From Cytospora piceicola (lineage: Eukaryota; Ascomycota; Sordariomycetes; Diaporthales; Cytosporaceae), in contig JALQBC010000030.1 of assembly GCA_023375675.1 (NCBI GenBank), forward strand, positions 310,001-374,000: a DNA stretch of 64,000 nucleotides. Direction: 5' to 3'. Under the pieces are notes generated by a model. The model worked only from the letters and a program-made list of their open reading frames with translations, did no database searches and had not been told where the DNA came from. Positions 8,388 to 64,000 of the stretch are shown piece after piece (position 1 is the stretch's first letter; every line of letters starts with the position of its first letter). The position numbers and the translations under genes were made by a program.

Positions 8388-8389
8388 TA

Positions 8390-8545
8390 CCTCGATAACG
8401 TAAAGCGATAATTTCCGATTTTAGCAGGTCTCGGCTCTTAAGACATTATCTTATATATATTTCTAAAGTATATTTTCGAGTATAATATATATTTCTAAAG
8501 TGTATTTTCGAGTATAATATATATTTTTAAAGTATATTTCGAGGT
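8390..8545. repeat. left terminal inverted repeat, copy 1
   Basis: The terminal 45 bases match the inverted right end almost base for base apart from transitions. After these come three 33-34-bp subterminal units (ATATATTTCTAAAGTATATT, then TTCGAGTATA), starting near 8,453, 8,486 and 8,519. Confidence 0.85.
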
Positions 8546-8884
8546 TAAAACTTAATTTTAAAGTAATTTCGATATCTAGATTAAGTTTCTAAAGTATATA
8601 TAACTCGAGTTCGAAGTAAAACCTTTTATTAGTCTTTTCCTTCCTTCCCTCTTATTAGAGTTAAAGGTTCTATAGCTTATATAGCTTTAACGCTTATCTT
8701 AGTAATCGGGCCTATTCCGAAGTTTTATTAAACGACGTGTTTACGTTAAACCTTTAGCTATATAAACTTACTTTCTTACCTTTTCGTTTTTAATTCTATT
8801 CTTTTTTCTTATAACTAACTTTTTTAACCTTTTAGCTATTAACTTATATTAATAAGTATTAACTTAAAATTAAAGGTTAAAACT

Positions 8885-10880
8885 ATAAAGTAGATTTAAA
8901 AGCTAAATCGAAAATACTGTTTAAAAAAAGAAAGGCTAAAGTAAAGTTAAAAGCCTCGGCTAAACTAAAAGCCTTAACTAAATTAAAAGCTTCGGCCGAG
9001 CCTTTTACTTTATCTTACTATTTAAGTAAAAAAAGGCTAAATAATACTATTACTTTAAGTAGTAATAATAAGTAGCTTAAACTTAATACGTTTACTAATA
9101 TCGTATCTAATAATATATATAAGGCTTAAAAGACCGGAGCTATTAATATTATTACGATTTAGTTTCTATAAAACTATTTTAAACTAAACCGGGACTTAAA
9201 GATATTACTTACTTTCCCGAACTTAAAATAATTCTTAAAGGTTATTAATAAAATAACGTTTAAAGCTATTGCTAATACCTCGAGTATATTGTAAAAGTAT
9301 AAGCTCTTTATAAATTTCGGATTCTTACCTATATATAAAATCTATATTAAAGAAAATAAAAATAACTATTTAGTTTTAGATTAGTAAAACCCGGTACTAA
9401 ATACTTTTACCTTCCGAGAGAAATAGCTTTAAAGCCTTTTTAAAGATAAAGTAAAAAATAACCTTAACTTTATCGGCCGTAAGTATAATAAAGTTATATT
9501 ATTCTACTCGCTTATAGCTATTAAAAAGAGTATAGAAATTATTAGCGAAATCTTTAGCTTTAATAAGGTAAAATATATATATATATATTAAACTTATATC
9601 GGTAAGTAAATAACCTTTTTCTTTTATATCCGGTTAATATTAAATAGTATTAACGAACTTTAATAATTTTAATATTATTTAGTACTAATAGACTTCGATA
9701 ATTTTATACTATTTAATACTAACGATTTAAATAACTTAATATTATTTAGTATTAATAAACCTCGATAATTTTAATATTATTTAATACTAACTATTTATAA
9801 ATAATATTAATAACCTTATAGTATATATATTTTATAACTCTTTAATTAAAGCTAAACTATATAAGTTTTAGTTATACTTATATACCTTAACAGACGTATA
9901 TAAATAATATATCGAACTAGTCGAAAGGTTTTAAAACCTTAGCTTAAAGCGGATCTATAAGTCGGTACTTAATAACCTAAAATAGCCGGTTCGCTTAATT
10001 AAAAATAATAACATCAGAATACTTTAACTTAAAAAGATTAATATAAATATAACTATAAATATAACGATCTTATAATATCTTACTTATTATTTTATAGGTA
10101 TTTATTTAAATACGGAAAGTATTAAGCAGTATAAACGTTATAAACCGAGTAAAGAATTTCTATAAAGCTTTTCGTATAATAATTTATTTTATAGCCTTAT
10201 ATTATACTTAGTATATATCCGATAACAGTATACCTTCGAGTTTATTATTATTAAAAAGTCTAGTAAGTTAAACTTAAATAAAAAGCCTTTTAATAGCGAA
10301 AATACTATTTAAACTTATATACGTACTACCGCCGTATAATATAAACGATTTATAAGCGATAACGTCGAAAGTATCCTGGATAATATAGCTTTTTAATCGG
10401 TTATAAATATATCTGCGGTATTCTGTTAACTACGTAATAAAATAAAGAACGTCTTTATTAAAGCTTTAAAAGGCGTTTATTAAAACTTTTAGCGTTATAT
10501 AAGATTCTTAGTTAAAGCGTTTTAATATAGCCGGCTAAACCGCGGCTATATAAAAAGCTGTTAGTAGAACTATAAAGCTAAGGTTTTCGACGTTATAGCT
10601 AATATTCTTTTTATAAACTATTAGACAGTATTAACTATAATCGAAAAGATTTATACCTAAGGTTTTTTAAAAAAGCTATATATTACGTTTATTTAAAACG
10701 AAAATATTTTTTAAAACTTTAAAATTCTACTACTTAAAACTTTTAATATCGAGTAGTATATTACCGGCTTTAATATAAACGTCGTCGTACTTACTATAAG
10801 TATTAAAAAAAATAATAAAAAGGTCGATAAAGACGATAGCGGCGCTTTTATATAAAGCGAGTATTAAAACAGACTAAAAT
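8885..10880 (+). pseudogene. RIP-broken exons, N-terminal part of SNF2-like gene (copy 1)
   Basis: If ATA is read as ATG and in-frame TAA/TAG as Gln or Trp, a Lys-rich start (8,885; copy 2 repeats PAKLKA) opens a frame running to about 9,590. After a repeat-filled intron-like spacer (9,600-9,830) another frame runs to about 10,880, ending in an acidic KKVDKDDSGAF segment. Copy 2 has the same frames at about 38,593-40,590. I recognise no domain. The same strand, order and spacing suggest these are the N-terminal exons of the SNF2-like gene that follows, but they could be a separate upstream gene. Confidence 0.45.
9600..9830 (+). repeat. intron-like spacer with repeated TACTAAC-type units
   Basis: Four to five imperfect units of AATATTATTTAGTACTAATA with GACTTCGATAATTTT between them. 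Each carries a TACTAA(C)-like branch-site motif, and the run ends with CTTATAG just before a new open frame. Copy 2 has the same array at 39,343-39,530. Similar units recur at 11,090-11,165, 13,495-13,640 and 14,795-14,850. Confidence 0.5.
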
Positions 10881-10904
10881 AATATTATATAGTATTAAAT
10901 CTCT

Positions 10905-13900
10905 TACTTTTTCAACTCCCGATTAATATTAATTTTATAACCGTACTCGATAAACTTAATATATATAATAAAAAGGCTAAAAGCAACGTTAAGTATTAAA
11001 ACCTTTATATAAACCGATAAAACAATAAAGATAAAAAGCCTTTAGACTTATATAGTATTAAACTTAAAGAGTTTTAAGTTATCGGTAAGCTTTATTTTTT
11101 AGTTAATATTTATTAGTACTAATATTAACGCTTTCCGTATCTTTTAATATTAACTTATTTTAATATAGTTTATATACTAACTAGCTAACTAAATATATAC
11201 TATTTATAACTTATAGTAAATAATACGATACGTAACGTCTTACTTATTAATAAAGTCGGTATAAGTAAAACCTTTATCTTTTTAATAAAACGTAAAGTAA
11301 CTATTAATAACTATTTAATTATTTTAACTAAGCTAAACCTTACCGAAAATAAAAATACCGAAAGGTATATAAAGTTATATATACTTATAATACTTATATT
11401 ACCTGTTGTTATTATTAAGTAATACTTCGACGAGATTTACCGGTTTTTTTTATTAAAAACCTTTTATATCCGGTTTTACTATAATTCGAAAAATAATACT
11501 AGCTATAACCTCGATCTTTAGTAAGCTATAATAACGACTAACTAACTTTATACCGAAATAAAACTTATCGTTTAAAAGAAAAATACTTTAAAAATAAGAT
11601 TTAAGCTTTAAAGTTAATATTAAATAATATTAATATTCTCTTTTTTATCGGTACTATTTAATATTAACTGCTTTAGTTAACTATTAACGGTTAAATATAA
11701 AATAAAATATATATAAGATTTAACTCTTCTTTTACTTTACTTCGGTATTCCGGATATTAAAGAAGACTTAAAGCTTTAACTTTATTAAAAAGAAAAGTAA
11801 TCTACTATTCGACTATAGCTTATAAGAATACGATATATAAGACTTAATTTAAAAGTTTAACGAAAAAAAAATAGCCTATATTTATAAAATAGTATTAAAC
11901 GTATATAAAAATAAGTCTTTTTAACGTAAAGTAGATATAGTATAAAAGCTAAACTTACCTTTTAATAAAAAGAAGGTAAACTTTAAGTTTTACGCTTTAA
12001 AAAACTAAAAGGCTTATAACGCCGACTATATTAGTAATAGTATTAACGATAAGCTACTTAAATAAAATAACTAAGTTAATAATAATAGTATAAAAGTTAA
12101 ATACTAAGTTAGTTTACTTAACGAAAAGCTTAAAATCTTTATTAATATTTATAATAAACTACTTTTTATATAAATAAATACCGGTAAGCCTTTAATATTT
12201 ATAAACGAAAAAATAAAGAAAGATAAACTTATAATACTTAAGTTCTTTAACTATTATTAAATAATATAATTCCTACTTAAGTTTTACTTTTAATATATTA
12301 TTCTTAATAAGTACTAAATAATATAAAACCCTTATACCGGATAGTCCCGGCTTATATATATAGTAATCTATATAGCTTATTAGCTAAACTACGAAAATAA
12401 AAAAACTAGTTTAGCCTTTTTAGTTATAATATCTATTATATTTACTATTAATAAAATTATAGACTATTACGGTTTTACCTTTCTGTTTTAATAAAATATA
12501 GACTTAAATAATATAGCCTTTTTTAAAAAAAAGCTTATAACAGATATTAAAAATAACGTTTTAAAGTTCTTATTAAAAGCTATATTTTAAAAATAAAAGG
12601 TAACGTTTACTTATACGTATACGTATTATAGTTAGTAGTAATAAACGTTATCTCCCGGCTTATAAGATATACGAAATACCGGTAAAAACTATAACAGCTA
12701 AAATATTGTAAAGGCGATACTTTAATATATCGGAATACGTTAAAAGATAAATATAATTACCTACTTCTTTAAGTATATTAATAGTAAGCTTTAACTAGTT
12801 TACCTTTATAACAGTATCTTTTTATATATAATAAAAATATATAAGCTAAAATACAGAATTAATAAGTATCTTATAAACGATTATATAAATAACTACTTTT
12901 AAAACTTTATATTAAACGATAATAATACCGATATAGTTAAAAATAAGATTAAACTACTTTTAAAAAAAGGCTAAGTCGAAGTAATCGTTAATAATAGTAA
13001 AAAAGTAGCGTTTTACTTAAACGCCGGTATCCTTTATATACTAATAATCGTATTAATAAATATACTTAGTTATAACGTTATATTAAGTAAAAACGTTATA
13101 AAAAACGTACTAAAAGAGGTTATTATAAACGACCTTATTAAGTTCGGAATCTAGTTAGTCCAGGCGAAAAGTAGTAAAAGGAAGAAAAAGAATACTTAAT
13201 AAGTCGTTAAAAAAATAACTAACTAAGATAACAGTCCGATTTCTTTTAACGTAAAGTATATAAACGCTATCTTTTATAGTACCGGGGATTTAAGCCTATC
13301 GTATCTTTAGCTTTTTATATACAGATTTAACTTATATAACTTTATTTTTACTAAACGGAAAGCCGTTTTTAATTATATTATCTATAAGTTACTAATTAAC
13401 TACCGTATACTAAAACTAGTTACGAAATAAGCCGTTAAATAAAAGAAAACCTTAATTATAATCGCTACTTTTTAAAAATAACTATAAATATAAATCCCTT
13501 TCTTATTAATACTATTTAATACCGATAACTTTTAATTTTATTCGTACTATTTAATATTAATAACCTTTTCTCTTATTAATACTAAATAATATTAATAGTC
13601 CTCTCTTTATTCGTATTATTTAGTATTAATAACTTTTATATTATAAGCTAACTATTTAACAGCCTTTTAGTTACTATTTTAAAAAAAGCTTTTCTGTCGG
13701 TTTTATCGATCCGCGCCGGTATAATTTCGTTAAAAAAAGCTATATATATTTCTAAGTTTAATAATAATATATTTAATATTAACGTTTTAGTACTAAACTA
13801 GTAATATAAATCTACCGGCCTAAACCTTTATTATTATTATTACTATAGTATCTAAGTTTAGTATTTTTAAAACTTCGGTACTACTATATAGTCTTTTAAA

Positions 13901-14645
13901 CATCTTATCTAAGTTAACTAATATACGAAAATAACGTAGGTTATACTATAGGTTAACGATACTGTTTATAACTACCTCGAGTATAAAGTATATATAAAAA
14001 AAGTATAAATATTTACCGCCGAGCTTATATTCCTTAACTAGTTAAAAAAGTATACTAAGTTTAAAACCTTTATAGTATATAAAGTACTACGTATTATTTA
14101 AAGTTAGCTTTTTAACCGTTACGTTTAAAATATTTATTACCTTAAAATTATCGAAAACTTTAACTCGATAGTTACTTACGATATTACCGAGTTTTATAAG
14201 TAGCTCGGGCTATTACTATTAAGCACTTTAAAAAAAGAACTCTTCGAGTAGAACTTTTTAAAAAAGCTCGATAATAAACTAAATATTTTTTTTAAGGTAT
14301 AGCTTACCGGTAATAACCTTAACTATAATCTTAGCTAAAAGGTTATAATCGAGCTTTTAACTATAACGGTTAATAAAGCTAATAAAACCGTAAGCTAAGT
14401 AAATAATATACAAAAGGAAATAGCCGATATAACCTTTAGTAATATAAAGAAAAAGAAAGTATTAGCGTTAAAATAAATCTTCGACAGTAATAGCCTTACG
14501 GTTAAGCGGCGGAAGCGAAAAAAGGCTAAAAAGGCTAAAAAGGTTAAAAAGGCTAAAAAGGCCGATAAGTCCGAAAAAGCCTAAAAGGCCGATAAGTCTA
14601 AAAAGGCTTAAAAGTTCGAATATCTAACTTTAATAAAATATAGGT
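10905..14645 (+). pseudogene. RIP-broken SNF2-family helicase-like gene (copy 1)
   Basis: After reversal of RIP stops this strand reads LLINKVGISKTF (about 11,245-11,285), the Walker A region of SNF2 proteins (xxVGxGKT), then a segment ending RFYYGSK (about 11,470-11,495; YYGSK is clear in copy 2), which fits the region after motif I. Far downstream are STGLNL (about 13,820) and an 11-residue QSFKRLIQVNQ-like motif (about 13,900) followed by VNDTVHNYLEYK. These are helicase motifs V and VI of the SNF2 C-terminal lobe. A convincing DEAH box was not located. The protein ends with a KKAKKAKK / KADKSKKA-type basic tail. SNF2 proteins are ATP-driven DNA translocases. Here the gene is certainly dead, with dozens of stops. 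Copy 2: about 40,612-44,350. Confidence 0.65.
14500..14620 (+). repeat. Lys-rich repeat tail of the SNF2-like frame
   Basis: AAAAAGGCT-type 9-bp units followed by GCCGATAAGTCTAAAAAGGC units encode KKA and KADKSKKA-type repeats in the frame of the helicase. Copy 2 has the same at about 44,215-44,330, with partly different unit numbers. The charge pattern resembles a nuclear or DNA-binding tail. Confidence 0.55.
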
Positions 14646-14649
14646 AAAG

Positions 14650-15049
14650 ATACGATTAAGTTAGATAAACCGGACTTTATACTTTATAAAATAGCTAAAC
14701 AGATAGTCGGAAATAAAGGCTTAAAAACTTAATAGTCTTTTATATTTAAGCTTTACTTAATAAATAACCTACTTTTTTAAAACGTTTTCCTAATTAATTA
14801 GTACTTATTAGTACTATTATTTACTACTCCTTTATACCTATTAGTACTAACTTATTATTTATAACTTATTAAAGATAAGTTTTCGGATTTTTATAACTAT
14901 TATTTTAAAGTATACTAATTAGGTAAATAATTACGTTTATATAACTATAGAATAATATAATCTATATAACTTTAGTTATCGAGCTAGTAATCGAAATATT
15001 ATTACTTATAATAGTTAGCCGACTTATATTACCCCTTTTTTCCGTTATT
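14650..15049. other. spacer between coding remnants
   Basis: A+T-rich sequence with AGTACTATTATTTACTAC and TTAGTACTAAC-like motifs at 14,795-14,850. No coherent frame is seen, so it is probably an intron or intergenic spacer. Confidence 0.35.
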
Positions 15050-15670
15050 ATAGTTTATAATATAGTATCTACCGAAACCTTTATAGTATAGAAAGTATAT
15101 AAAAACAGGCCGGTTAGATTAGTTTTAACTAAAGATATTAAGGCTTATACTTTTTAAAACTATTTCTGTAGTAAACTAAATAACGTCGAAAATATTTTAG
15201 TTTAGTTTATATATATTATATAAAATATATACCTTAAGCTTAACAGCCTTATATACGCCTTAATAAACCTTAAATTTAATAAAAAAAAGCGTTATATTTT
15301 AGCTTTTAAGGTTCGAGTAGTAAAGAAAGAGTAAAACGTTTTAAAGTAGGAACGTTTAACGAACGAAAAAAAAAAGCTTATAAAAGTTTCGGACTGTTAG
15401 CTTAAAAATAAAAACGTTAGTATATAAAAAAGTAAGTAGTATATTTAAAACTAAAAGGTATAAGTTAAAAATCAGGAATAATATATAAACGAATATATAT
15501 AGTTTATCTTTTAAGCCTTTATAAGGGTCGAGTTTTTAAACGTTTAGGCTAAGTAGGATATAAACGCCGCCGAGTAAGCCGTTTCGAAAAGTAAAGTAGA
15601 GATTTAACAGGTCCGGGAAGCTATAAAGAATTTAGTTAATATTTTAAAAGGTATAAAAGCTATAAATTAA
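15050..15670 (+). pseudogene. RIP-broken coiled-coil-type ORF (copy 1)
   Basis: A plus-strand frame of about 207 codons from an ATA (old ATG) at 15,050 to TAA at 15,668-15,670. The second half is rich in Lys, Glu, Gln and Val, with a heptad-like spacing that looks coiled-coil. The end (SKSKVEI, then VREAIKNLVNIL) is the clearest amphipathic stretch. The first part is more varied. No family is recognised. The same frame in copy 2 is at 44,757-45,378. The position just after the helicase suggests one gene cluster in the same direction. Confidence 0.45.
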
Positions 15671-16239
15671 AGATAACTATACCCTTTTATTAACCTAACT
15701 AAAAGCTTATTAAACTACGGTATAAAAAGGTAAACGCTTACCGATAAAAAGAATTTAAAATTTAAACTAAAAGGTAATATTTTATAAGGTATAAAGTAAG
15801 ATAGATAATATTACTATTTATATTACTACTTAAATAATAAATAATATAAGATTAATTACTATAAAAAGACAAGCTTTTAAGATATTTAAATAACTTATTA
15901 CTTTTCTTTATTATATTTATTATTATTATTAATACCGTTATTATTATTATCGCCTTAATAAATATTAATAATTATCTTTTTATTATAAAGTATTTAATAT
16001 ACTGTTATTATATTAATAGTAATGTTTATTAGTTTACGGAATAAAATATTTATTGATTTTACCGAGTTAACTAAACGTTTTAAGTTAGCCGGATTAAGCT
16101 TAGCTACTGTTTTCTTAATAGCTTTAAAAGGCCTATAGTCCGTTATAGCCTACCCTTTTAATATACCGCCTTCGGCCGGTTTAATAACGATGTTAAGTCT
16201 TTATATTTAATATACCGGCGTTTAATTTTATTAGTATCG

Positions 16240-17190
16240 GAATATTTAGTTATAAAAAAGACTTACTATATCGAACCGCGCTTTAATACCGGAAACTTTA
16301 GAAATATCGATAAGGTTATTTATAAGGAGGTTTATACTTGTTAACTATTTTTTATTAATAGTAAATAAACGCCGAAGCTTTATATCGAAAAGGCTAGCTT
16401 ATAAAGTAATTTTAACTTTACTAGCTATAGTCGAAAGCCGGGAAATAATATAGATTATAGCCGAAAGAATATCTTTCTTCTTAGTATTAAGTATATTAAC
16501 GCCGAGATAATTATAAACGTAATCGACTATACGGCTTTTTTAAAAGCCGGTAATAAGGTAAATAAAGGTAAAAGTATTATTAAAACGGCTTTTAAAAACG
16601 CTTAGGTTATATATAACCCGGTAGATAACGTTATTAAAGCGGCTATATTTATAGCTACCGGTAACGAAGGAAAAGTTATATATCTTATTCTTTTCTTTAA
16701 GGCTATAAAAAGACTTAAACTAGTAATTATAATAGTAGTTTAAAAAAGGTAAAGTAAGAGTATTTATTATAGAAAGTAAAGTACCGGTAAAAAGTTAATA
16801 TATAGCCGATAATAAAAAGCTTAAATTTTTCGGTAAATATATAACTAACGGTATATTAAAGTATTATAGGATATTCTAAATAGTAATAGCTTAGTTTAAA
16901 GTAATAAAAAGATAGGCCTACCGCTATACTTACCTTTAAAAAGATAAGCTTACCGTTTAAAGGCTTTATTTATAATAAACTATTATAGTTAGAAATAAAT
17001 ATAAGTTATAGTTAATAAAGTTATATTATACTCTTTTATTTAGCTAATACGTTATATTAATAATATTTAAACCTTAGAAAATAAAAGTAAGATATTATAA
17101 ACTTAAAGATAACTCTTCTGTAATTTAAACGTTAAAGAAAATAAAGTTATTTATAAGTATAATAGTATAGTAGAATAACTATAAGAACTA
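16240..17190 (+). pseudogene. RIP-broken ORF of unknown function (copy 1)
   Basis: A single plus-strand phase stays coherent for about 950 bp if TAA/TAG are read as old Gln/Trp. It includes EPRFNTGNFRNIDKV, then SRKPGNNIDYSRKN, VIDYTAFLKAGNK and, after a TAA at 16,741, TFKKISLPFKGFIYNKLL. Composition is natural and copy 2 keeps the same phase (about 45,948-46,898). Start and end are not certain. A different phase at 16,058-16,240 (FTELTKRFKLAGLS) may be an upstream exon. I recognise no domain. Confidence 0.4.
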
Positions 17191-17224
17191 AACTACTGCT
17201 TTTCTTATTTAAAAACTAATAACT

Positions 17225-17410
17225 ATACTACTATTTTTAGCCGAAAAGTACTATTCTTAAAAATAAAATAAAAATAAAAATAAAAAAACTACTTAAAACT
17301 AACCTTTAAACTAAAAAAAAAACTACTATAAAACTATAAAATAAAAACTATAAAAAAAACTACTATAAAACTATAAAATAAAAACTATAAAATAAAAATT
17401 ATAAAAAAAA
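17225..17410. repeat. A-rich minisatellite (copy 1)
   Basis: Repeats of AAATAAAAATAAAAATAAAA and then of CTACTATAAAACTATAAAAT / AAAAACTATAAAA units, all purine-A rich on this strand. Copy 2 holds the same array at 46,965-47,120 with slightly different unit sequence. Confidence 0.7.
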
Positions 17411-17599
17411 ACATTATTATTATAACTATTTAACCCGGTATTACCGTACTGTTAAAGATAAGTAACCGTTTAAGCCGTTACTCGGTATTACCTTTAAAAA
17501 CTAAAACCTGTTTTTCTTATAAAGTTTAAAGATTTATATCTTTAGTTTAAAATAAGTAATAAAACTATATTACGTTTAGTAATTACTACGTTAAAATAA

Positions 17600-17840
17600 A
17601 ATACTATAATAATCTAAAAGGTAAAGGTATTAACGAAATAAGTAGTAACTAATATCTTATAAAGGGTTTTAAGGTTAGCTACTTAAAACTTTTTTATAGG
17701 TTTTATAGTAACTACCGGGATTACGAAAAGTTCTATAAGAAGGTACGGATAAAGAAAAGAGGTAAAGCGTAATAAGAGCTATACGGCTTTTAACGTATAT
17801 CTTTAATAGCGACGGGTTTTATTAGTAATAGTATTCTAGT
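17600..17840 (+). pseudogene. short RIP-broken coding segment (copy 1)
   Basis: A plus-strand segment with coherent codons (SYLKLFYRF, then YRDYEKFYKKVRIKKRGKA), rich in Tyr and basic residues, flanked by repeats. It is kept in copy 2 at about 47,305-47,548. It is probably one exon of an unknown gene. No domain is recognised. Confidence 0.3.
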
Positions 17841-18021
17841 ATATAAATACTTAATATATAGATATTAAGGGGTTAACCGCCTTTAATACTTTAGTATCGG
17901 GTTTTTATAATACGAAATAGTATATTTAAAAGCGGTCTTAAAGTAGATAAGGACAGGAATAGTATAGGTTATTATTATTATTCCGGCGGTATATTCGCGA
18001 TTAGAACTGTTTAAAATATTT

Positions 18022-18083
18022 AAGCCTTTATTAAAAGAGCTACTTAAAGCTAGCCGTTTAAGTAGCTTTTTTAATAAAGGCTT
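18022..18083. repeat. 27-bp inverted repeat (strong hairpin), copy 1
   Basis: AAGCCTTTATTAAAAGAGCT plus ACTTAAA is followed, after 8 bases (GCTAGCCG), by its inverse complement with one mismatch of the C-to-T type. It sits about 200 bp before the start of the 826-codon frame. Copy 2 has a weaker version at 47,730-47,793, where extra transitions have broken some pairs. Confidence 0.8.
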
Positions 18084-18181
18084 AAGAAAAGTAACTAAAC
18101 TTAAAACTTTAGTAAAATACTTAAGGTAGGTAATATATTTTACTCTTAGTATTAAACTAAGTATAGCTTTTTATATAAAAC

Positions 18182-18205
18182 ACCTAGCTAAATATTAAGC
18201 TAGGT
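18182..18205. repeat. small inverted repeat ACCTAGCT/AGCTAGGT
   Basis: Eight-base arms are separated by AAATATTA. It lies between the 27-bp hairpin and the start of the 826-codon frame. It could be a leader structure or a protein-binding palindrome. Copy 2 has degraded arms (TTAGTTAA / TTAAGCTAAG) near 47,891. Confidence 0.4.
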
Positions 18206-18286
18206 ATTTAGATATAGTTTTATAAATCCTTATACTTTATACCGTTACTATTATATTATTAATTCCCTTTTATTTATTAAATAGCT

Positions 18287-20767: not shown

Positions 20768-20769
20768 TT

Positions 20770-22725: not shown

Positions 22726-23389
22726 ATATATATATAAGGTAACGGTAATAGTAATAGTATCGGTATCGGCTCGGGTTTATCTTTATACTACAGCTATAGT
22801 AGTAATAATATTAGTATCGACGGTTTAGTAAAAAGGCAGCTTTACGTTTTTAAGCTAGGATTTCGTGTTTATATAAACGATTATTACCTCCGATAGATAA
22901 TTTTAGTTTTATATCCGATAAGTCGGAGGGGCTATATACTTATTTCGGATATATACTTAGATAATATATCTTATACCGTTATAATTCGTCTAAATTAGGT
23001 TTTAAAAAATATTAGTAGTAAACTTAGTTTTTTTTATTAGATATTGCTTTTTTAGCTATTACTTTAGTATTTAATAAATATACTTACAGCCTTTTTTATT
23101 TCCTTTTTTCTATAATATTATTTAAGCAGGTTATCTTACTTTAATAGTATAAGGACAGAAGCTTTTTATAATTTATACTTTTGCTTTTTAGTTATTTAGC
23201 TTTTAAAAAGGAGCTTTCGTTTTAGTTAATATTAAAAAGTATAAACGAAATTAGTATATAAACTATTAACACCTTTTAGTATTAACTACTATTAGTTATT
23301 AACTAGTAATTTTAATCTGTTCTTAAGGTTTATTATTATAGTTTTTAAGGTTATTAATTATACCTGTTAAATTTTAAATAAACGTTGTG
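22726..23389. other. coding-like region, strand unresolved
   Basis: Both strands of 22,730-23,000 give fairly coherent frames after RIP reversal. An example on the plus strand is DGLVKRQLYVFKLGFRVYIN. I could not decide between them. Two units of TAATATATATATATAAGG lie at 22,706-22,742. The rest to 23,389 shows AGTATTAACTACTATTAG-type motifs like the putative introns. Confidence 0.3.
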
Positions 23390-28389: not shown

Positions 28390-28394
28390 AAAGT

Positions 28395-47793: not shown

Positions 47794-47994
47794 GAAAGGT
47801 AGCTAAACTTAAAACTTTAATAAGGTATTTAAAGTAAGTAATATACTTTACTTTTAGTATTAAACTAAACGTAGCTTTTTATATAAAATACTTAGTTAAA
47901 TATTAAGCTAAGTATTTAAGTATAGTTCTATAAATCCCTATACTTTATACCGTTACTATTATACTATTAATTCCTTTTTATTTATTAAATAGCT

Positions 47995-50475: not shown

Positions 50476-50477
50476 TT

Positions 50478-52415: not shown

Positions 52416-53094
52416 ATATATATATAAGGTAATATATATATATAAGGCGGCGGTAATAATAGTAGTATCGGTATTAGCTCGGGTTTATTTTTATATTACG
52501 GCTACGGTAGTAGTAATATTAGTATCGACGGTTTAATAAAAAGGCAGCTTTACGCTTTTAAGCTAAAATTTCGCGTTTATATAAACGATTACTACCTCCG
52601 ACAGATAATCTTAGCCTTATATCTAATAAGTCGAGGAGGCTATATACTTATCTTAGATATATATTTAAATAGTATATTTTATACTGTTATAATCCGTTTA
52701 AATTAGGCTTTAAAAGATATTAGTAGTAAACCTAATCTTTTTTACTAAATATCGCCTCTTTAGCTACTACTTTAGTATTTAATAAATATACTTATAGCCT
52801 TCTTTATCTCCTTTTTTCTATAACGCTGTTTAAGTAGGTTACCTTACTTTAATAGTATAAAAACAGAAGCTTTTTATAATTTATACTTCCGCTTTTTAAT
52901 TATTTAGCTTTTAAAAAGGAGCTTTCGTTTTAGTTAGTATTAAAAAGTGTAAATAAAATTAATATATAAACTATTAGTACCTTTTAGTATTAACTGCTAT
53001 TAGCTGTTAATTAGTAATTTTAATCTGTTTTTAAGGTTTATTATTATAGTTTTTAAGGTTATTAATTATATCTGTTAAATTTTAAATAAACGTT

Positions 53095-54850
53095 ATATTA
53101 ACGCGGTTAAAGACTATATTAAGCGTAATACAGTCTTTTCTCGTATTTACTATTAGATATAAATAGCGTAGCTACTCGAAATTAGACCTTAATTTTTATA
53201 GTTGTTTATTATTACCGATATATAGTAAAAGTTTATTAAACGACCTTATAACTATCTGCTAGCTTTTTATAAAAGGCTTATTATTAGGTACTAGCTTTTT
53301 TTTAAATATAGAAAAGGAAAGGAAAGCCCCGATACTTATTATAGTTACTTTTAATACCTTCTTATAGTACGGTTAATTATATTATAAATTATATCTTTTA
53401 TATTATATACGGCCTTTACGTTAAATACCTTATAGCTTAAAAAGAAGAGAACTACTTTATATTATCGAGCTTAAAAACTACTTTTAATTCCCTTTTTTAT
53501 AGCTACTATACCGAAACTAAAGACCTTTTTAATAATAGCTATTATACTAAGATTAAAGACCTCCTTAATAATAGCCTTTATACTAAAACCGAAAACCTCT
53601 TTAGTAACAGCCTTTATACTAAAACTAAAAACCTTTTTAATAACAGCCTTTATACTAAAACTAAAGACCTCTTTAGTAATAGCCTTTATATTAAAACCGA
53701 GGACCTCTTTAATAATAGCCTTTATACTAAAACCGAAAACTTTAGTAATAACCTTTATACCGAAACTAAGGACCCTTTTAGTAACCTTTATTATAGCCTT
53801 TAAATAGTACCGGATAGTTAACTATTTATAAGCGTTTACTTTTTATACGAGATTATCGAAGAGATCGCCGAGATATTTATTTCGAGTAGGTTCTTCGATA
53901 TATATTTAAGGGAATAGTTCTTTTCTTTACTTTTTACTTAAACGAGTAGCTTTCTCCGATAAGCTTATATACGAAAGGCCGGGTACGCCTTTTTAACGAA
54001 AACGATAACTTATAAAAAAAACAGGTAATAAGGTATATAAATATTAAACGATATATCTCTTATAAACTAATAATTTTATAATAAATATAATAAACCTGTG
54101 TTAGCTAACCGAGTACGATATACTTTTTATCGATACGAACGAGTACTTATATTAAAGTAGTATCTTTACGTTAGTTTTTTAAAATATAACAGCTATTATT
54201 AAAATCGTTTTATATAAGTTTATAAAATTATTTAATTAGTCTATTATACTTAAAAGCTTATTAAACTTAAAAGAGGTAATATTAATATACCTTATAAAGC
54301 TTTATTTTAATATATATATAAGCCTTAAGGTAGATAATAAACTACTATATCTTATAGATATAACCTTTTATACCGAGTAGTAAGGGTTTATAAGGTAGTT
54401 TTAAAACCTTTTTTTATTAAGTATTATAACGTTTAACGGTAAAAACCTTATTAGCTTTATATTTATACTTTATAAAGATGTTTAAAGTATCGAGTATAAG
54501 CTTAAAATATAGTTTTTTAGAAACTAGCTTAACTTAGCCTTTAAAAAGGAAAGGCTTTTTTAAGTTTATAGCTATACCCTTTAGCTTATTAACCTCCCGG
54601 ATTTTATTAAGATATAAAAGAATAAAATTACTTTTTTTTAAAGTTAAAGTAAGTATAACTAAAGTATGTTATTTTAAACGTTTTAAACTCTTTATTATAT
54701 TAGGTTAACGTTATATAGCGTTTTACTTTACTTAAGATTTAAAGGAACTAAGGAATTAAAATAGTATAAATAATATAGTACGAATAGAAAGTATATACTT
54801 AAATACTTAAGTACTTAAAACAGATTTAATTATTTTTAAAAACTAATATA
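53095..54850 (+). pseudogene. 12-residue-repeat gene (copy 2)
   Basis: Counterpart of 23,390-25,150. The repeat array lies at 53,500-53,800, followed by the same conserved frames (IPDSIKI-like region near 54,600). The unit order in the array differs a little from copy 1. Confidence 0.45.
53500..53800 (+). repeat. 36-bp tandem repeat (copy 2)
   Basis: At least eight units of CTTTTTAATAATAGCCTTTA plus TACTAAAACCGAAAAC type, with the same period and phase as copy 1. Confidence 0.8.
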
Positions 54851-57800
54851 AACTAATAGGCTAATTTAATACGATACAAAAGTTAGTATCTTTTATCTTA
54901 GTTAGTATTAAAAAGTGCCGATAGTCTATAGGTCGATTAAATATACCTTTTAGTATTAACTATTAACTACCGTTAGTTAAAAGTTAATAGCTAATAGTTA
55001 AAAGCTAATAGTTAGTAGTTAGTAGTTAGTAGTTAGTAGTTATAGCTTTTATTATCTTAGTTATTAATTAGCCTTTATATAAAAGATAATATACGATTTA
55101 GCCGTATATATATAGTACTTTAGCTAAGCCTATTTATTAAGATAAACCTTTATTCGATATTTCGTTTACTATTAATTAGGCTACTTAAGCGAATTTAGTA
55201 CTATATTTAGAGTTTTTTAATTACCGGTAAAATTACTAATTATTAATTACTAATCTCGACTGTTAGCTAATATTAGCTATAGTTAAATATTAGCTATTAA
55301 TTACTAGCCGTTATTATTAATATAATTACTAAAATATTAAAATACTACGATATTTAGTAAATATATATTATATACTTATAAGGTTAGCCTTATTTACGTA
55401 AAATCGCAATAAAGTAGTATAGGTCTCGGCTTATAGATCCTGCTCGGTAAGCTTAATTTTACTTAATTTAGTAAAAGGTAGGCTTAAAAATTAAGGTAAG
55501 TTAGTTCCTTATTATATACCTTATATACGGCTTTATAAGACTACAGGGACAGCTATTAAGCTTTAATTATTTAATAACCTATAGCCGAAAACAGCTATAT
55601 TATAAATAGCTTTATTATTTACTTTTTTACTGCTAATTAGCTATATATTAATTATATAGAGATAGTATAAATTAATCTGTTTAGCCGGTCGTTTTTATAT
55701 ATAAAAGTAAAGTATATATAGGTATAGGTTATCTAATACATGCTTTCTAATCCTTATAATCTTATTAAAGATACCTTTATCTAATTATAGATTTTAGTAG
55801 TAGTTAATATTAAAAAGCGTAAACAGATCGTATCGTAGGTTCGAAAGTATACTTACCTTAAACATTTACCTTAAACTTATAAAGTTTATTTACTTTAAAC
55901 GTCTTAAAGTATATACGCTTACGTTAGAAAATAAGTTTAATAACTATAAATCGATTTATTACGTTTACTATATAAATTAATTAGTCGGCTTATATAAATA
56001 TATACTAGAGCTTACCGTAATATATATCGGGGTAAATATATATCGGAGAGACTATAAGGGGGCCGATAAGAAAGCAAACTCGAATAACAGTATATAATAC
56101 TTAAAGGCTTTAATACTTATATTATAAAAGGTTTAGTCGGCTAAATTAACTAACGGTAGTAATATTAATAATAATTCTTAATAGTATATAATAAGTAATA
56201 ACCTATAAGTAAAGCTATAAGTAGTAAGTAATAGGTAATAGGTAGTAGATAGTAGGCAGTTAATATTAAATAACGTTAATAGATTAATTAGTAGTATTAT
56301 ATAATATTATTAATTAGTTTATTCGTACTTTTTAATATTAACTAAAGCGAGAACTATATTATATAGTTTTATTATAAAGATATTAATAGTTCGTAAAGCT
56401 ATCTATAAGTTAAACTTAGGTAAATAGTTAAGTAAATAACTATAAACTTATAAAAATAACTATCTTCTTTTAATACGTATATACTAAGAGATAAGTTTAA
56501 TATATATAAGTTGATTTTTTATAATCCTTATATAAAATAATTTATCGGTAATAAAAAAGTATATATTTAAGCCTACTATAACGTATTATATTATAAACTT
56601 ATATCGAAGAGACTATAAAAAAACGTTCGAATTAAAAGAAAGATATCGGAAATAGAATTAAAAGTAGTAACTTAAGTAAGACTATTTAGCTTATTAAACA
56701 CTTCGTTCTTAAACGTAACTTTTTATAAAACGTACCTTTTTCTAAGTAACGTATATACTTAGGTAAATATTCTGTGTAATAACAGCTTATCTCTTTTTAG
56801 CTTAACTAGTAGTACTCTTCGAGTATATAATTATAGTAGTAATAAAACCTTAAACGGTATATAGTAGTAGCTAGTTAAAGTATATAGTTTATCTTTAAGC
56901 TTTAAGGGTTTATTTTTAAACCTTTTATATAAAATATAAGCTTGTTTTTAAGTAAAAGACTATTTATACGTAATATAGGCTTAATTCGTTAAAGTAAGTT
57001 ATAGTAAATTTATACTATCTTTTAAATAGTATTACCTAGGTATATTACGTAGATATAGCTTATTTCTTTCTATTTTAGCTATAGCTTAGATAGTAGTGCT
57101 TTCCGAATATATAATTATAATAATAATAAAAACCTAAATAGGTTAATAGCGTAGTTTTAATAATAATCCGGGTTTTAAGCTTTTAAACGTATAATAGCTT
57201 TTTAAAAACTCTATTTACAGAATATTATAGTTATTTACTAAGTTAGTTTTTTAAAAGATTCCGAAACGGCGTTTTAACGCGCGGCCTTTTAGCTATAAGA
57301 GTTACTAGTAAGTTTTTTATTTTATATAGTTTTTATTACGTAGTTCTTTAAATAGCCTAATAGACTAAGAGTTTCGGTTATAAGGAATTTATAGTAGGTT
57401 TTAACTTTATAAACGTAGCTACTCCGGTAACTTACGTTAATAGAAAGCGCTAGTTATACTAGTATAGGCTTTTCTTCGGATAAGTAATAGGTAATACTTA
57501 CCTTTAAAAAACGCTAAATAGCTATACCCGGAGTATTATAGCTATTTTAGTATTAAGGGAGTTAAAGTTAATCGAATCTATAGCCGTATTTAAAAATATT
57601 TAAAGGTATAAAGGCTTATACGTTAAAAGTAGAATCTATACTATATAAGCCTTTACTATAGCGAAAGCTTATATTAAAGATATTTTTTTTAGTTATAGGT
57701 TTAGTTAATAAGGTATATATAAACGGAATATATAACATATAAAAGGGCGTTAAAGGTAATACGACCTTATAATAAAATATATTAATAAGACCGCCCGAAG

Positions 57801-58066
57801 GGATTATACTATATCGATAGCTACTATTAAACCTAAATATAAAACCTTAATAATAATATAGATATAAACAGAGACAGTTAATAAGCTTATAAATAGTAAT
57901 TCTATTTTTTATAATAGCTTTTTACTTTAGATTTAAAATAAGGTTTCCGGCTAAAGGAGTTTAATACGTTTATTAGATCTGTTATAGCTTATTAGTCTTT
58001 TAAAAACCCTTTATAAGATTATAGATTTTATACCTTATTTAGCTAAATAATATTATAACGTAAAGT

Positions 58067-58270
58067 AGTTTCGAAGAACTTATAATAACGGATTATTCTT
58101 TAATTTAAGTTTATATAAAAATTAAATATAGACTTAAAAGTAAGTACTTAAAGAACTTACGATATAGATCGTTTTTTAATTTAAGCTAGAAATTAAGTAT
58201 AAACCTAAGAACAAGTACTCGAAGAACCTATAATATAGATCGTTCTTTAATTTAAGCTAAAGATTAAAAT
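58067..58270. repeat. about 71-bp tandem repeat, three units, copy 2
   Basis: Counterpart of 28,395-28,597. GATCGTTCTTTAATTTAAG-like cores recur three times. Confidence 0.65.
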
Positions 58271-58654
58271 ATATATTATATTAATTAACTCTATAAACTT
58301 TTCCTGTTTATACGCTTATACTAGTATATTATACCTTTTACTTTTAAAGTAAAGACTTATAAACTAATATTTAAATATATAGTTTTACTATCTTTTAAAT
58401 TTATAATTATTTTAAAGATATTTAAAGGTATAAAGACTTATACGTTAAAAGTAATATCTATTAAACCGTATAAGTACTACTTACTATAAAAGTATCTATT
58501 AAAGATATTTTTATTAATTATAGGTTTAATATAAGTTTATAATAATATAGCTACTTATAAATATAGGACTAAAGCGACGATAAAAGCTTAAGTAGCTTAG
58601 TCTTTATACTAGAAGTTACTATAGACTTTATTACCGTAAGCTATTATTAATAGA

Positions 58655-59128
58655 TTATTACCTTACTAGATCTATTCCCTTATTAGATTTATTCTTTTAT
58701 TAGATCTGTTCTTTTACTAGATCTGTTCTTTTACTAGATCTGTTACCTCGTTAGATCTATTGCCCTGTTAGATCTGTTACTTTATTAGATCTGTTACTTT
58801 ACTAGATCTGTTACCTTATTAAATCTGTTACTTTATTAAATTTATTACCTTATTAAATTTATTACCTCGTTAAATCTGTTCTCTTATTAGATCTGTTACC
58901 CTGCTAGATTTATTACCTTATTAGATTTATTACCTTACTAAATTTATTACCTTATTAAATAATATCTATTATATAATTAAAGGTATTACCGTGTTCTGTT
59001 ACTATAAGTTCTGTTACCTTATTAGATCTGTCCTCTTACTAAATCTATTCTTTAGATCTGTTTTTTAGATCTGTTATTTAAATCTATTACCTAAATCTGT
59101 TCTTTAAATCTGTCCTTTAAATCTGTTA
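58655..59128. repeat. 17-bp minisatellite, copy 2
   Basis: Counterpart of 28,985-29,440. Many units keep TAGATCTG, where copy 1 has TAAATCTG, so the un-mutated unit was probably TTACCTTGTTAGATCTG-like. Confidence 0.85.
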
Positions 59129-59199
59129 CTATAGGCTATATTATTATTCTATTACCTTATTAGATTTATTACCGTAAGCTTTACTATAAGATAATACTT

Positions 59200-59675
59200 T
59201 TACTATATTTAGATCGAGATCGCTTTACTTAAGCCGGTTTATAAAAAGATAAGTTAAAAAACGTTTAAAAATATATACTTATATTATAATTTATCTTTAT
59301 TATTAATTAGCTACTATTCTTAAAAAGTACTAGTAAATAGTAATTCTTACGATATTTTACTAAGTAGTAAGGCTAAGGTTTAAGTTATTAATAATAAAAA
59401 AATAAAGATTATATAAAACTTTCCGGGTTTTTCGAAATTATCGATATTAATTTATAGTATAGTAGCTTATCTGTATTTTCTATTTAAAATAACTTAAATA
59501 ACTCTAAGTTTTATAAGTTAATACTTATAGAATCGCGTTTATAAAAGGCTAAAACCGTTAAGAAGCTTTAAAAACTTATTAACGTTATAGTGTTTTCGGT
59601 AAGCTTTATTTAAAGGAAGTAAAACTTACTTTTAACGTATTCTTATTTTTCAGGACTTTCTTTTTAAATAAATAA
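59200..59675 (+). pseudogene. basic ORF (copy 2 of 29,520-29,990)
   Basis: The same phase is kept. The YSVFGKLYLKEVKLTF segment is present. No family is recognised. Confidence 0.3.
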
Positions 59676-59968
59676 GTCTTTTAAGTCGATTACTATTATT
59701 CTTAATACTATTACGACGAATAGTTAATAAGCTAAAATTAATTAATATAGAAGTCGTACTTTATTTACTCGATACTTAGTAACTCGACTAATTAGTTAAT
59801 TAATATCCTTTTCGGCTTAAACTTACTAATATTACGATTTTATTAATTAATATCTTTAAACGTTATTTACCTGCTATATTAACCGATTTACGCTTTAAAC
59901 GGACTTTTAACTTTTAACTTTTTTCTTAACCTTTCTTTTAATCGCCTTATAGATATAGTATTTCTACT

Positions 59969-60193
59969 ATAACCTTAGATAATAATACGGCTAAACGTAT
60001 TAACGTATATAAAGAATAACGTTTTATTTCGAGCTTAAATAAGGCTTTATATTTAAAAGACGTTAAAGTCGAGTCTTCCGAAAAAAAAACAGCTACCGCG
60101 TTAAAAACGGTAGAAGAAAAGCTTAAAATTAAGGTTAAGACTTTAGTAAAGCGTAAAAAATATATCTTTTTATATAAAGTTAATATTATTTAA
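59969..60193 (+). pseudogene. small basic ORF (copy 2 of 30,280-30,504)
   Basis: The same 75-codon frame, with one internal TAA. It is slightly more acidic in the middle (SSEKKTATALKTVEEKLKI), which is likely the older form because those codons keep G/C. Confidence 0.45.
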
Positions 60194-60589
60194 TACTAAA
60201 ATAATACTATTTAAATAATTTTTATTACTATAATTTACTTTAATTAAATACTAATTATAACGTATATAATATTTATTTATTATCTATATACTTATTAAAA
60301 AAAGAGCGTAACTAGCACCCGAGTTAATACTTATAAGTATTAACTTTAAACTTAATTAATTAAATGTTTTAACACCTTTTAGTATTAACTAGCCTTATAA
60401 CTTTTTAAAGGCTTATATTCGATACTTTATAGATCGGGCTATTATCTAATTTCGTTACTTAAAGACTAAGTACTTAAGTACTTAAGTATTACTAATTTAT
60501 TTTTTAATCTAAATACCCTACTTAACGTTATATATCCTATTATATTTATAAAATAAATACTATCTTAATATATCGTATAGTTTTATTAT

Positions 60590-60835
60590 TAAACTAATAT
60601 TACTAACTCTTTTTTTTAAATTTAAATACCTTATTAAATATTATACTCTGTTATCTTTATAAATAATATATTAACTAGTATTACTAACTCTATTCCTTAA
60701 TTTAAACACCTTACTAAACATTATACTCTGTTATCTCTATAAATAATATATTAACTAGTATTACTAACTTTATTCCTTAATTTAAACACTTTACTAAATA
60801 TTATACTTTATTATATTTATAATTAAATACTTATT
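60590..60835. repeat. about 80-bp tandem repeat, three units, copy 2
   Basis: Counterpart of 30,905-31,145 with the same unit count. Confidence 0.65.
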
Positions 60836-62210
60836 AATATATCGATATAAATTAGACTAGTACTTACCGTTACTTATTATTTAGCCTACTTAGCCGTTAC
60901 TTAGTCTTTTTTTTATAAAAAAGTCTGCTAATATAAAGTAGCCGGTTACCTACTTAGCTAAGCTATATCTAAGCCGATAAGAGCTCGGGGTATATCGGGT
61001 TTATATATATCTTTAAAGGTTTTTTTCTGTTTAGTAAAGAGTAGTAAAATAAGCCGGAAAAGCGATAGCTTTACGCCGATATTACGTATAATAAGCTTAA
61101 CGAGACTTTACCGCTTTAAATATAGGCTTTAGATATTTTTACTTTAAATATAAATTTTTATATTTTAGTATCTTATCCCGGCTATATTTAAAACCTTATA
61201 TAATATTATCTTATATATACTCGGATTTTATTATAAGCTATTATCGGTTATAACGTCGGCTATAACGTTTATAATTATTAGATAAGCGATTAGCGGTTTT
61301 TACTACTATATCTTTTACTCGTTATAAACTTAAAGGATACGTCGATTAGTAAGTTTACTATAAAGCTTTATAGCTATTATTTTAAACTAGTTCGGCTTAT
61401 CAGGTAGTTACTATAGCTATTACAGCTATTATATCTACTACGGCTATTACGTTTACTATATTTACTATAACGAAAGTTACTTAACAGGTTACTATAAGGT
61501 TTCTTAACTTAATTATTTTAAAGCTAGCTGTTAAGCTATTATATAACGTCGGAAAAGTTTACCTTAAGTAATAGTTAATAACGTACTTTTTAAGACTTAG
61601 ATAATAAAAACAGACTTAAATATATATTTCGATAAGATTTATTTTAGTTAAGGTAAGATCTTATTCGTCTGTTTACTCTCGGATTTCGTATTTAATTATA
61701 TTTATAAGAAAGAGTAGCTCCGGCCCGAGTAGGTTATCTTACGATAGCTTAAATTTTTAAAGCGTAAAAAGGATTATAAGCTTTTTTTATTCTTTTTAAT
61801 CTTCGATCGGGATAGCCTGCTTTTTAGTTTAGTTTTTAAAGTTATTTTATAAACCGTTACTTAATACAGATCTGCGATTTATTTAAACGGTCTGCTATAA
61901 GAGAATATATTACGATAAGGTTAGCTATATACTGTTTACCGAGTTTATTATATCTATAAAAAGTAAAGTATATAGTATTTCGAGGCTAAAATCTAGTAGT
62001 TTTAAAGGCAATATATATAACTTAAGTAGGTAGTAACAATTAAAGGGCTTAAAACTTAGGCTTAAAGCCGTTATTACGATTTCCTTTAATTTAAAACTGT
62101 TACTTAACGCCTTTCTATTAATAGCTTTTAGCTTTTTATCGACTACTTAAAGCTATTTTAATATTATCCCTTTTACTTTTATTAGTATTATTATTAGCTA
62201 AGTTATTTTA

Positions 62211-62470
62211 TAGCCTTCCGATATTCTAAGGTATAAAAGAAAGCGGTTTAAAACTTTTAAAAGCTTACTATAGCCTTTTAATATTCTAAGGTATAAAAGA
62301 AACCGGTTTAAGGTTTTAAAGTTATTTCTATAAGCTACTAATATTATTAAAGTATAAAAAAGAACGGTTTAAGACTTTTAAAAGTTTACTATAGCTTTCC
62401 GATATTTTAAGGTATAAAAGAGACCGGTTTAAGATTTCGGAGTTATTTTTAAAGGCTACCGATATACTTT
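62211..62470. repeat. about 60-bp tandem repeat, four units, copy 2
   Basis: Counterpart of 32,515-32,765 with the same alternation of AAAGCGG-like and GAGACCGG-like units. Confidence 0.75.
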
Positions 62471-62580
62471 AAGATTATTTAAAGCTATATTAATAGCCTT
62501 AAACAGCCGTTAAGTAAGTAACTTAAGTATATAGATTTAAAAGCTTACCTTTTTTATATTAACTTTCTTAGAATTTTTAG

Positions 62581-62968
62581 ATCTTTATAAACCTTTTCTA
62601 CTAGACCTTATTTACTAGACTTTAATTCTTAAACCTTATCTACTAAACCTTTTCTGCTAGACCTTATCTACTAGACTTTATCTTTTAAACCTTATCTATT
62701 AGACCTTAATTTTTAAACCTTAATTCTTAAACTTTATTTATTAAATTATATTTTTATAAACCTTATCTACTAGACTTTATCTTTTAGACTTTAATTCTTA
62801 AACCTTATTTATTAGACTTTAATTCTTAAACTTTATCTATTAGACTTTATTTATTAGACTTTAATTCTTAAACTTTAATTCTTAAACCTTATCTGTTAGA
62901 CTTTAATTTTTAAACTTTATCTACTAAACCTTATCTTTTAGACCTTATCTCTTATACTTTAATTCCTA
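62581..62968. repeat. 14-15-bp minisatellite, copy 2
   Basis: Counterpart of 32,885-33,280. Units such as CTACTAGACCTTAT keep more G than in copy 1. Confidence 0.8.
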
Positions 62969-63189
62969 GTTACATTTATAGGATAGCAGAAACCGGATAT
63001 TATAAGTAAGGTAAGCTTAAAACCGTATACTATTTCTTATCTTATTACTAATATAGATAATTCGAAAAATAAGATATTATTTTCGAAAGTTGCTTTTACT
63101 ACTACCTCGAAAGCTATAAAAGGCTAATAAACTATTAATAATCCTTATATTTATAATAAAGTAATATTAGTAGTAAGTTTAAACTTTTT

Positions 63190-64000
63190 AAATATTCTAG
63201 TTTTTACCTTTATATTAATTAAATCTAAAGAAAGTCGATGTATAAAAGTAAGCCGTTACTATTATTACTATTACTGTCGTTACTATTATTGTTATCGTTA
63301 AGTAGTCTTTTTATATTTAAAAAGATAACGAGTTAGCTAATAGCCTTTTATAGTCTTAATAGTAAACGGAAATATATATATTTAAAAACCTGCTATAAGT
63401 AATATATATACGTTACCTTAATAACGTCTTCCGGTTTATAAACCGACGGGCTTAGCTTAGTAACGATAAATTAAATAGGTTAGTTTAACTTATTTAGTAA
63501 AAATATAATACTAAATACTTACTTTTTAAGATAATTTTATTACTAGTAGGCGAACTAAAAGATATTATCGCCCGGTTTAGCTAAAAAACTAAAAATAATA
63601 TTAAGTCGGCTTCTGTCTATACTACGATTATAAACCTATTATTTATCGGCTTATACTAAACTTTAATCGTTATATATAAAGGTAAGCTTTTATACTTCGA
63701 TACGTCGGCTTTATAATATATATTTACTTTCTATACTTAAAAACTCTTTATACTTATCTTAACTTTAGCCGGTATCGATACTTATTTCTTACCTATTATA
63801 ATCGTCGACGTACTTTAGTAATTAAATAAGTAAGAGTATAAACTTCTTATTACCGAGATATAACGTAAGATTATTTATAAAAGTAACCCGACAGCGGTTA
63901 TAAGTTAAGACGAAAGTATTAAAAAGGTTATTAAGCTATAAAAGGCCGCGATTATTTAAAAGCTTAACGATATTAAAGATAAAGACAGGCCCGAAGGATC
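63190..64000 (+). pseudogene. 5' part of the 1,260-codon ORF (copy 2, cut by window end)
   Basis: Counterpart of 33,500-34,304. The phase is the same and more G/C is kept at the very end (KDRPEGS-like codons against KNKPKKS in copy 1). The rest lies beyond the window. Confidence 0.5.

What the first reader, a model, noticed from the sequence alone, without database searches (positions are those of the whole stretch)
8388..64000. Two head-to-tail copies of a 29.7-kb TIR element with TA target, not matching a giant element I can name
Seen: matching ends (CCTCGATA...TATCGAGG), about 150-bp inverted repeats and a flanking TA. A second copy follows at an offset of 29,708 bp, with at least eight coding remnants per copy on both strands. 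Known: elements with a 2-bp TA target duplication are usually small (Tc1/mariner, pogo-like), while Mavericks have 6-bp duplications and Starships use a tyrosine recombinase and different ends. Inference: this is a giant cargo-carrying TIR transposon, or a virus/plasmid-like element bounded by TIRs, possibly of an undescribed group.
Basis: partly seen in the sequence, partly recalled or inferred. Interest (0 to 1): 0.9.

Follow-up and report, generated by a model that had tools for sequence, protein, structure and literature searches.

The report
Dead giant transposon family, fungal-type genome
The window holds two neighbouring, mutation-riddled copies of a giant mobile DNA element that is scattered nearly fifty times through one genome that mutates its repeats as fungi do; its ends, insertion sites and genes do not fit the giant elements tested here, and the enzyme that moved it is still unknown.

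Summary
Copy 1 fills window 8390-38095; copy 2 starts at 38098, 29,708 bp on. Both are heavily RIP-mutated inside normal DNA. Three details change. (1) Copy 1 is atypical: the 13 other elements measured at both ends are 33-45 kb with one E1 and one E2 end (copy 2: 33.5 kb, leaving the window), whereas copy 1 has two E1 ends and looks recombinant. (2) TA is not the target: in 14 of 14 elements read at both ends exactly one flanking base (A or G) matches, never two; outside E1 lies a pyrimidine-purine step in 37 of 38. (3) A core gene piece lies at 48 loci, every one with stop codons. Core genes occur in three arrangements relative to the ends. One gene is probably a Snf2-type helicase (mainly through unmutated relics); another looks zinc-finger-like by eye. 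No transposase or recombinase was recognised; DUF3435, Plavaka and DNA_pol_B_2 profiles match no element, though RIP damage limits sensitivity. Best reading: a RIP-killed family of giant DNA transposons, with ends more like Starships than mariners, moved by an unidentified enzyme; possibly an undescribed superfamily.

The parts
2959..3546 (.). Short (588 bp) MITE-like element in the non-RIPped flank, with one E1-like and one E2-like end; G on both sides
8388..8389 (.). Left flanking TA of copy 1 (a pyrimidine-purine step)
8390..38095 (+). Copy 1, 29,706 bp: A-type body, A-type E1 left end, B-type E1 right end (probable recombinant)
8390..8533 (+). Left terminal repeat (E1, A-type) with subterminal repeats
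37964..38095 (-). Right terminal repeat of copy 1 (E1, B-type), unlike the E2 end of the other A-type copies read
9890..14488 (+). Remnants of a probable Snf2-type helicase gene (two registers, so probably several exons); helicase motif region at about 13733-13832 and just after
15200..15706 (+). Coding remnant also found in the B1-type copy (coordinates approximate)
   Evidence: 35% over 183 aa
16510..16914 (-). Tentative minus-strand coding remnant shared with the B1-type copy (approximate)
   Evidence: 34% over 135 aa
18089..19036 (+). Core gene remnant R7, in A-type and other copies
   Evidence: coordinates
19283..22540 (+). Core gene remnant(s); the first part (19283-20839) is found at 48 loci; right edge approximate
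23995..24957 (+). Core gene remnant preceded by a repeat array with 36-bp spacing; displaced in the B1-type copy
34294..37488 (+). Large gene remnant, zinc-finger-like by eye; 47 places genome-wide, un-RIPped fragment homologue in L029
38096..38097 (.). TA junction between the right E1 of copy 1 and the left E1 of copy 2
38098..64000 (+). Copy 2 (first 25.9 kb); the element continues to C26:381586, total 33,489 bp, ending in E2

Best explanation
A family of giant DNA transposons (33-45 kb in the 13 measured with both end types) that reached at least 47-48 places and was then killed by RIP. Shown: discrete boundaries in normal DNA, asymmetric inverted-repeat ends E1 and E2, one matching flanking base, a pyrimidine-purine step outside E1, heavy and largely separate RIP damage of the copies, shared core genes, a short derivative bounded by E1- and E2-like ends. 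Probable: one gene is a Snf2-type helicase. Inferred: an element-encoded recombinase or transposase, not recognised here, cut at E1 and E2 and joined the element into a pyrimidine-purine step, leaving at most one duplicated base; the helicase and the zinc-finger-like protein helped or regulated it. Members reshuffled: the same core genes stand in three arrangements relative to the ends. Copy 1 is probably a dead product of such exchange, an A-type body joined to a B-type end beside its closest relative, copy 2.
For: Copies and boundaries. Ends and flanks: (38 distinct E1 flanks among the loci fetched: 38 purine at -1, 37 pyrimidine at -2; 14 of 14 one-base match, 0 of 14 longer). RIP. Core genes in A-type and other copies. 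Arrangements. Helicase. Copies 1 and 2 closest: 1.67 transversions per kb against 6.3-11.5 for the other 20 pairs of seven copies. MITE-like element.
Against: No transposase or recombinase was recognised, so the mechanism rests on the ends alone. No empty site was available. The single matching base may belong to the target or the ends and not be a duplication: 12 of 14 are A/A and 2 are G/G. Helicase evidence from the A-type element itself is weak or negative. The fingers were read by eye; Pfam does not call them.
Confidence: 0.7

Rival explanations
1. It is a divergent Starship: a DUF3435 tyrosine recombinase was encoded but is too damaged or too divergent for the Pfam model.
For: Giant size and asymmetric inverted repeats are Starship features (passages of PMC12257634, and PMC12153272); captains can share as little as 15% identity; the lack of a fixed duplication of 2 bp or more suggests site-specific recombination (inference).
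Against: PF11917 finds one RIPped locus in the genome (C51) and none inside an element, so a RIPped DUF3435 can be seen. In one study 19 of 20 Starships had direct repeats, 2-12 bp long; here 1 bp.
Confidence: 0.2
2. It is a DDE-type DNA transposon carrying a Snf2 helicase, such as the groups named Inton and Enton.
For: A Mobile DNA paper names Snf2 helicases in Inton and Enton (passage of PMC3627910). A Snf2-type helicase is probable here.
Against: No description of those groups was found in the library, so ends, target and transposase cannot be compared; that they are DDE elements is my assumption. No DDE domain was seen in the Pfam scans.
Confidence: 0.2
3. It is an integrated virus-like or plasmid-like element with terminal inverted repeats.
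For: A multi-gene core conserved between diverged members.
Against: No DNA_pol_B_2 match, no capsid or packaging domain in the Pfam scans, no relative in viral contigs for three queries. All are weakened by RIP or by query quality.
Confidence: 0.08
4. The repeats are ordinary segmental duplications or an assembly artefact.
For: Two copies stand head to tail and are each other's closest relatives among the seven compared.
Against: Dozens of dispersed copies with the same end types and different flanks; 3,654 transitions between copies 1 and 2.
Confidence: 0.02

Closest known systems
Starships (DUF3435 tyrosine-recombinase giant transposons of Pezizomycotina)
   Same: Size range, asymmetric terminal inverted repeats, RIP-damaged copies reported
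   Different: No DUF3435 match inside an element; flanks match by one base and not 2-12; dozens of copies with a shared core of several genes
Inton and Enton (named only)
   Same: Snf2 helicase encoded by a transposon
   Different: Cannot be compared: no description found in the library
Tc1/mariner and pogo
   Same: Terminal inverted repeats
   Different: No TA duplication in 14 of 14; 30-45 kb; no DDE domain recognised
AcademH
   Same: DNA transposon that encodes a helicase
   Different: AcademH makes 9 or 10 bp duplications; the helicase of Academ is named as RecQ, here Snf2-type
Maverick/Polinton; KDZ/Plavaka
   Same: Large elements with inverted repeats (recalled)
   Different: No DNA_pol_B_2 match, no Plavaka match, no 6-bp duplication

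Membership tests
Starship | DUF3435 captain as first gene | tested here: not met
   PF11917: 2 matches, both at one RIPped locus on C51, none inside an element. RIP limits sensitivity.
Starship | Short direct repeats (2-12 bp in 19 of 20) | tested here: not met
   0 of 14 with 2-10 bp; 14 of 14 with 1 bp
Starship | Asymmetric terminal inverted repeats | tested here: met
   E1 and E2 differ but align
Tc1/mariner | 2-bp TA target duplication | tested here: not met
   0 of 14; copy 1, set aside, shows TA on both sides, one of them the junction with copy 2
Tc1/mariner | DDE/D transposase | tested here: inconclusive
   None in the Pfam six-frame scans; no dedicated search
Maverick/Polinton | Family-B DNA polymerase | tested here: not met
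   PF03175: 0 matches in the genome at E up to 1; RIP limits sensitivity
Maverick/Polinton | 6-bp duplication (from the finding; recalled) | tested here: not met
KDZ/Plavaka | Plavaka transposase profile | tested here: not met
   PF18759: 0 matches at E up to 1
KDZ/Plavaka | KDZ transposase profile | not tested
   PF18758 was not searched by itself over the genome
AcademH | 9 or 10 bp duplication | tested here: not met
Inton/Enton | Snf2 helicase | tested here: inconclusive
   Probable, through un-RIPped relics and one B1-type frame; A-type frames alone not significant
Inton/Enton | Ends, duplication, transposase | not testable with these tools
   No description found in the library

The most novel reading that the evidence does not exclude
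An undescribed superfamily of giant eukaryotic transposons: a conserved multi-gene core with a Snf2-type helicase and a zinc-finger-like protein, asymmetric E1/E2 ends, insertion into a pyrimidine-purine step with a one-base footprint, moved by a recombinase of a kind not yet recognised in giant elements.
Probability: 0.35. Interest if true: 0.8.

Novelty: new variant of a known kind. Interest (0 to 1): 0.55.

Why it matters
Starships, the best-known giant transposons of filamentous fungi, are recognised and classified through their DUF3435 captain (listing), so giant elements without one would be missed by captain-based surveys. A high-copy family with a shared gene core and a one-base footprint would be a second route to giant mobility. 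With 47-48 loci and measured lengths of 30-45 kb it may make up on the order of 1.5 Mb of this 43.6-Mb genome (rough estimate; many loci were not measured and may be truncated).

Tried and rejected
Stop-codon mapping first suggested a minus-strand gene at window 35.8-37.2 kb. The un-RIPped homologue L029 showed that coding is on the plus strand. The genome search had been made with that minus (antisense, in-register) frame: its 47 places stand, but its stop counts (29-49) are those of the antisense frame and are not used as evidence of damage; plus-frame stops are seen (seven copies). Low stop density does not locate genes in RIPped DNA.

A draft of this report said that the interiors of all non-A copies are inverted relative to their ends.

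Hits of core piece R7 to C34 and C46 proved to be an unrelated RIPped element, probably an LTR retrotransposon (by eye), matched through an acidic tract. Weak matches to ODV-E18 (E 0.029), Rv0428c_C, Actin_micro, DnaJ and DUF2774 were taken as chance.

A profile of host Snf2 domains degraded forwards by simulated RIP scored best at the expected place (20.0) but not above its null (mean 19.2, maximum 28.9, 120 shuffles): no support. Profile-profile comparison gave E 0.068 (probability 0.8%) at the right motif against 0.33-0.9 for four controls: weak. PDB searches with profiles A3, A4, A5 and A11 found nothing relevant, nor did the L030 piece. Pfam on the six members of A3 found nothing. Three protein searches found no homologue. 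Searches were given in the wrong frame and are void; replace them. The AcademH lead was dropped on duplication length. Genome contigs, phages and plasmids were not searched.
Full report
Where it lies. The window is C26:310001-374000 of an unnamed 43.6-Mb assembly in 99 contigs. A fungus is inferred from the RIP signature; no call names the organism.

Observation. Copy 1 spans 8390-38095 and copy 2 starts at 38098. GC is 0.45-0.52 in the left 8 kb and 0.22-0.29 inside. Six copies compared with copy 1 (one incompletely fetched) differ from it by 22,618 transitions and 1,028 transversions. At sites that still vary, C before A is mutated in 74% of cells, before T in 38%, before C in 5.5% and before G in 3.4%. 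RIP indices agree. The element is real and RIP-damaged.

Copies. The 2-kb left-end query finds internal sequence at 18 loci and terminal-repeat fragments at others (40 of 95 candidates scored). The 2.1-kb right-end query finds about 40 loci (40 of 116 scored). The right-end gene gives 49 rows: 47 RIPped places and two divergent ones (antisense frame, see Tried and rejected). The best-conserved core piece gives 80 rows at 48 loci, 18 of them A-type, and every row holds stop codons; the 18 A-type loci hold 32-41 stops each over about 520 codons. The helicase-region pieces find the same 18 A-type loci and no other family member of comparable similarity. The other loci share core genes at 27-59% identity. 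One of them, C21:414888-452403, was read whole.

Ends. The A-type copies read carry E1 (CCTCGATAACG...) at the helicase side and E2 (CCCTGTTAAGCG...) at the side of the zinc-finger-like gene. Copy 1 is the exception: two E1 ends, the right one B-type. Its last 3.8 kb matches C21:418657-414888 at 80.6% up to the end, whereas the A-type copies stop matching it at element position 28.7-28.9 kb. Its closest relative among the seven copies is copy 2: 48 transversions in 28.8 kb, against 178-268 for the other 20 pairs. I read copy 1 as a recombinant of an A body with a B end (inference).

Arrangements. From the coordinates, with ends where not read, 46 loci could be laid out (loci found by only one of the two gene queries were left out). 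A: 17 of 17 have the core piece reading away from E1 and the zinc-finger-like gene in the same orientation on the far side. B1: 9 loci have the two genes in the same orientation 11-12 kb apart; where E1 is known (7) the zinc-finger-like gene lies nearer E1 and the core reads towards E1, so the interior is inverted relative to the ends. B2: 20 loci have the two genes in opposite orientation 24-35 kb apart; where E1 is known (11) the zinc-finger-like gene lies nearer E1 and the core reads away from E1 as in A. The family has thus reshuffled its genes between the same ends; how is not known.

Target. One search lists 38 distinct E1 flanks among the loci fetched: purine at -1 in 38, pyrimidine at -2 in 37. 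It lists 17 distinct E2 flanks: T (14) or C (3) at -1. Fourteen elements have both ends read: 11 A-type including copy 2, two others (C21, B1; C47, B2) and the MITE-like element of the window. In all 14 one base matches across the element; in none do two or more (2-10 tested). Copy 1, with two E1 ends, was left out of this count; its flanks would match as TA. Whether the single base is a duplication, or part of the ends or the target, cannot be told without empty sites: 12 of the 14 are A/A and two are G/G.

Genes. Period-3 signal marks coding stretches at several places. Six-frame comparison of an A-type copy with the B1 copy gives conserved pieces whose best frame is plus (A coordinates): the zinc-finger-like gene (69% over 1,001 aa), 10.9-11.8 kb (41%), about 15.7 kb (38%), 12.9-14.2 kb (25%), 6.8-7.3 kb (35%), 11.8-12.5 kb (29%), and a tentative minus-strand piece at 8.1-8.5 kb (34%). 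In the B1 copy the pieces R7, 10.9 kb, 12.9 kb and the zinc-finger-like gene keep A order and orientation; the 15.7-kb piece is displaced.

Helicase. The piece at window 13589-14488 (searched as its C22 counterpart) matches two un-RIPped decayed places, C22:72.5 kb (E 8e-17, 35%) and C22:115 kb (E 0.0017, 20%, across the expected motif region). The latter carries a Helicase_C match (E 0.0078, below the curated cut-off); the C22:70-75 kb stretch carries another (E 3.6e-4, also below cut-off), which lies about 1 kb beyond the piece matched by the element and so may belong to a neighbouring relic. That second unit matches 43 PDB sequences at E up to 1, most of them named as Snf2-family helicases, best DDM1 at E 9e-4. 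In the B1 copy a raw frame matches a profile of six host Snf2 domains at E 8e-5 in a set of 72 frames, Pfam Helicase_C at E 0.11, and nine of ten PDB rows are helicases (best E 0.1). A-type frames alone are not significant. I hold the helicase as probable.

Zinc-finger-like gene. L029 (C1:445001-447500, GC 0.54) holds an un-RIPped homologue of about 1 kb. Three C/H patterns resembling C2H2 fingers are visible by eye; Pfam does not call them.

Known families. DUF3435, Plavaka and DNA_pol_B_2 profiles give no match inside an element. The DUF3435 search found a RIPped remnant elsewhere, which serves as a positive control for that one profile; the other two have none here. Pfam scans in six frames of one A-type copy and the B1 copy give only ODV-E18 at 0.029, taken as chance. 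These scans also did not call the helicase, so they miss damaged domains. Three protein-database searches and three scans of viral contigs find no relative; how many fungal proteins that database holds is not known to me.

Literature. Nine paper searches were made. In their listings I saw no giant element with these ends or genes; I read only passages of PMC3627910, PMC10045372, PMC12257634 and PMC12153272. This does not show that none is in print.

Verdict. A RIP-killed family of giant DNA transposons, or at least of elements that behave like them, with Starship-like size and ends but no recognised captain and a one-base footprint. The mechanism is inferred from the ends. Interest 0.55; the undescribed-superfamily reading stands at 0.35.

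Noticed in passing
window 2959-3546: MITE-like 588-bp element with E1- and E2-like ends in non-RIPped DNA; its copy number elsewhere was not searched.
   Followed up: partly
window 23733-24131 and 53441-53803: Repeat array with 36-bp spacing, open in several frames; the number of stop-free repeat matches differs between copies.
   Followed up: no
L030 and L031 (C22:112001-117000 and 70001-75000): Un-RIPped, decayed Snf2-like relics related to the element's helicase; L031 also holds a low-complexity repeat tract.
   Followed up: partly
C51:181911-182709 of G000: Single RIPped DUF3435 remnant, a possible old Starship captain.
   Followed up: no
L072 from about base 930 and L073 (minus strand) from about base 1180: Another RIPped repeat with a shared sharp edge, probably an LTR retrotransposon by eye.
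   Followed up: no
window 4826-5542: Minus-strand ORF of 238 aa with a weak cytidine-deaminase-like match (PF00383, E 9e-4, below the cut-off) and a signal-like N-terminus by eye.
   Followed up: no
G000, 29 non-A loci: Two further arrangements of the same genes between the same ends (B1, 9 loci; B2, 20 loci); what rearranged them is unexplained.
   Followed up: partly
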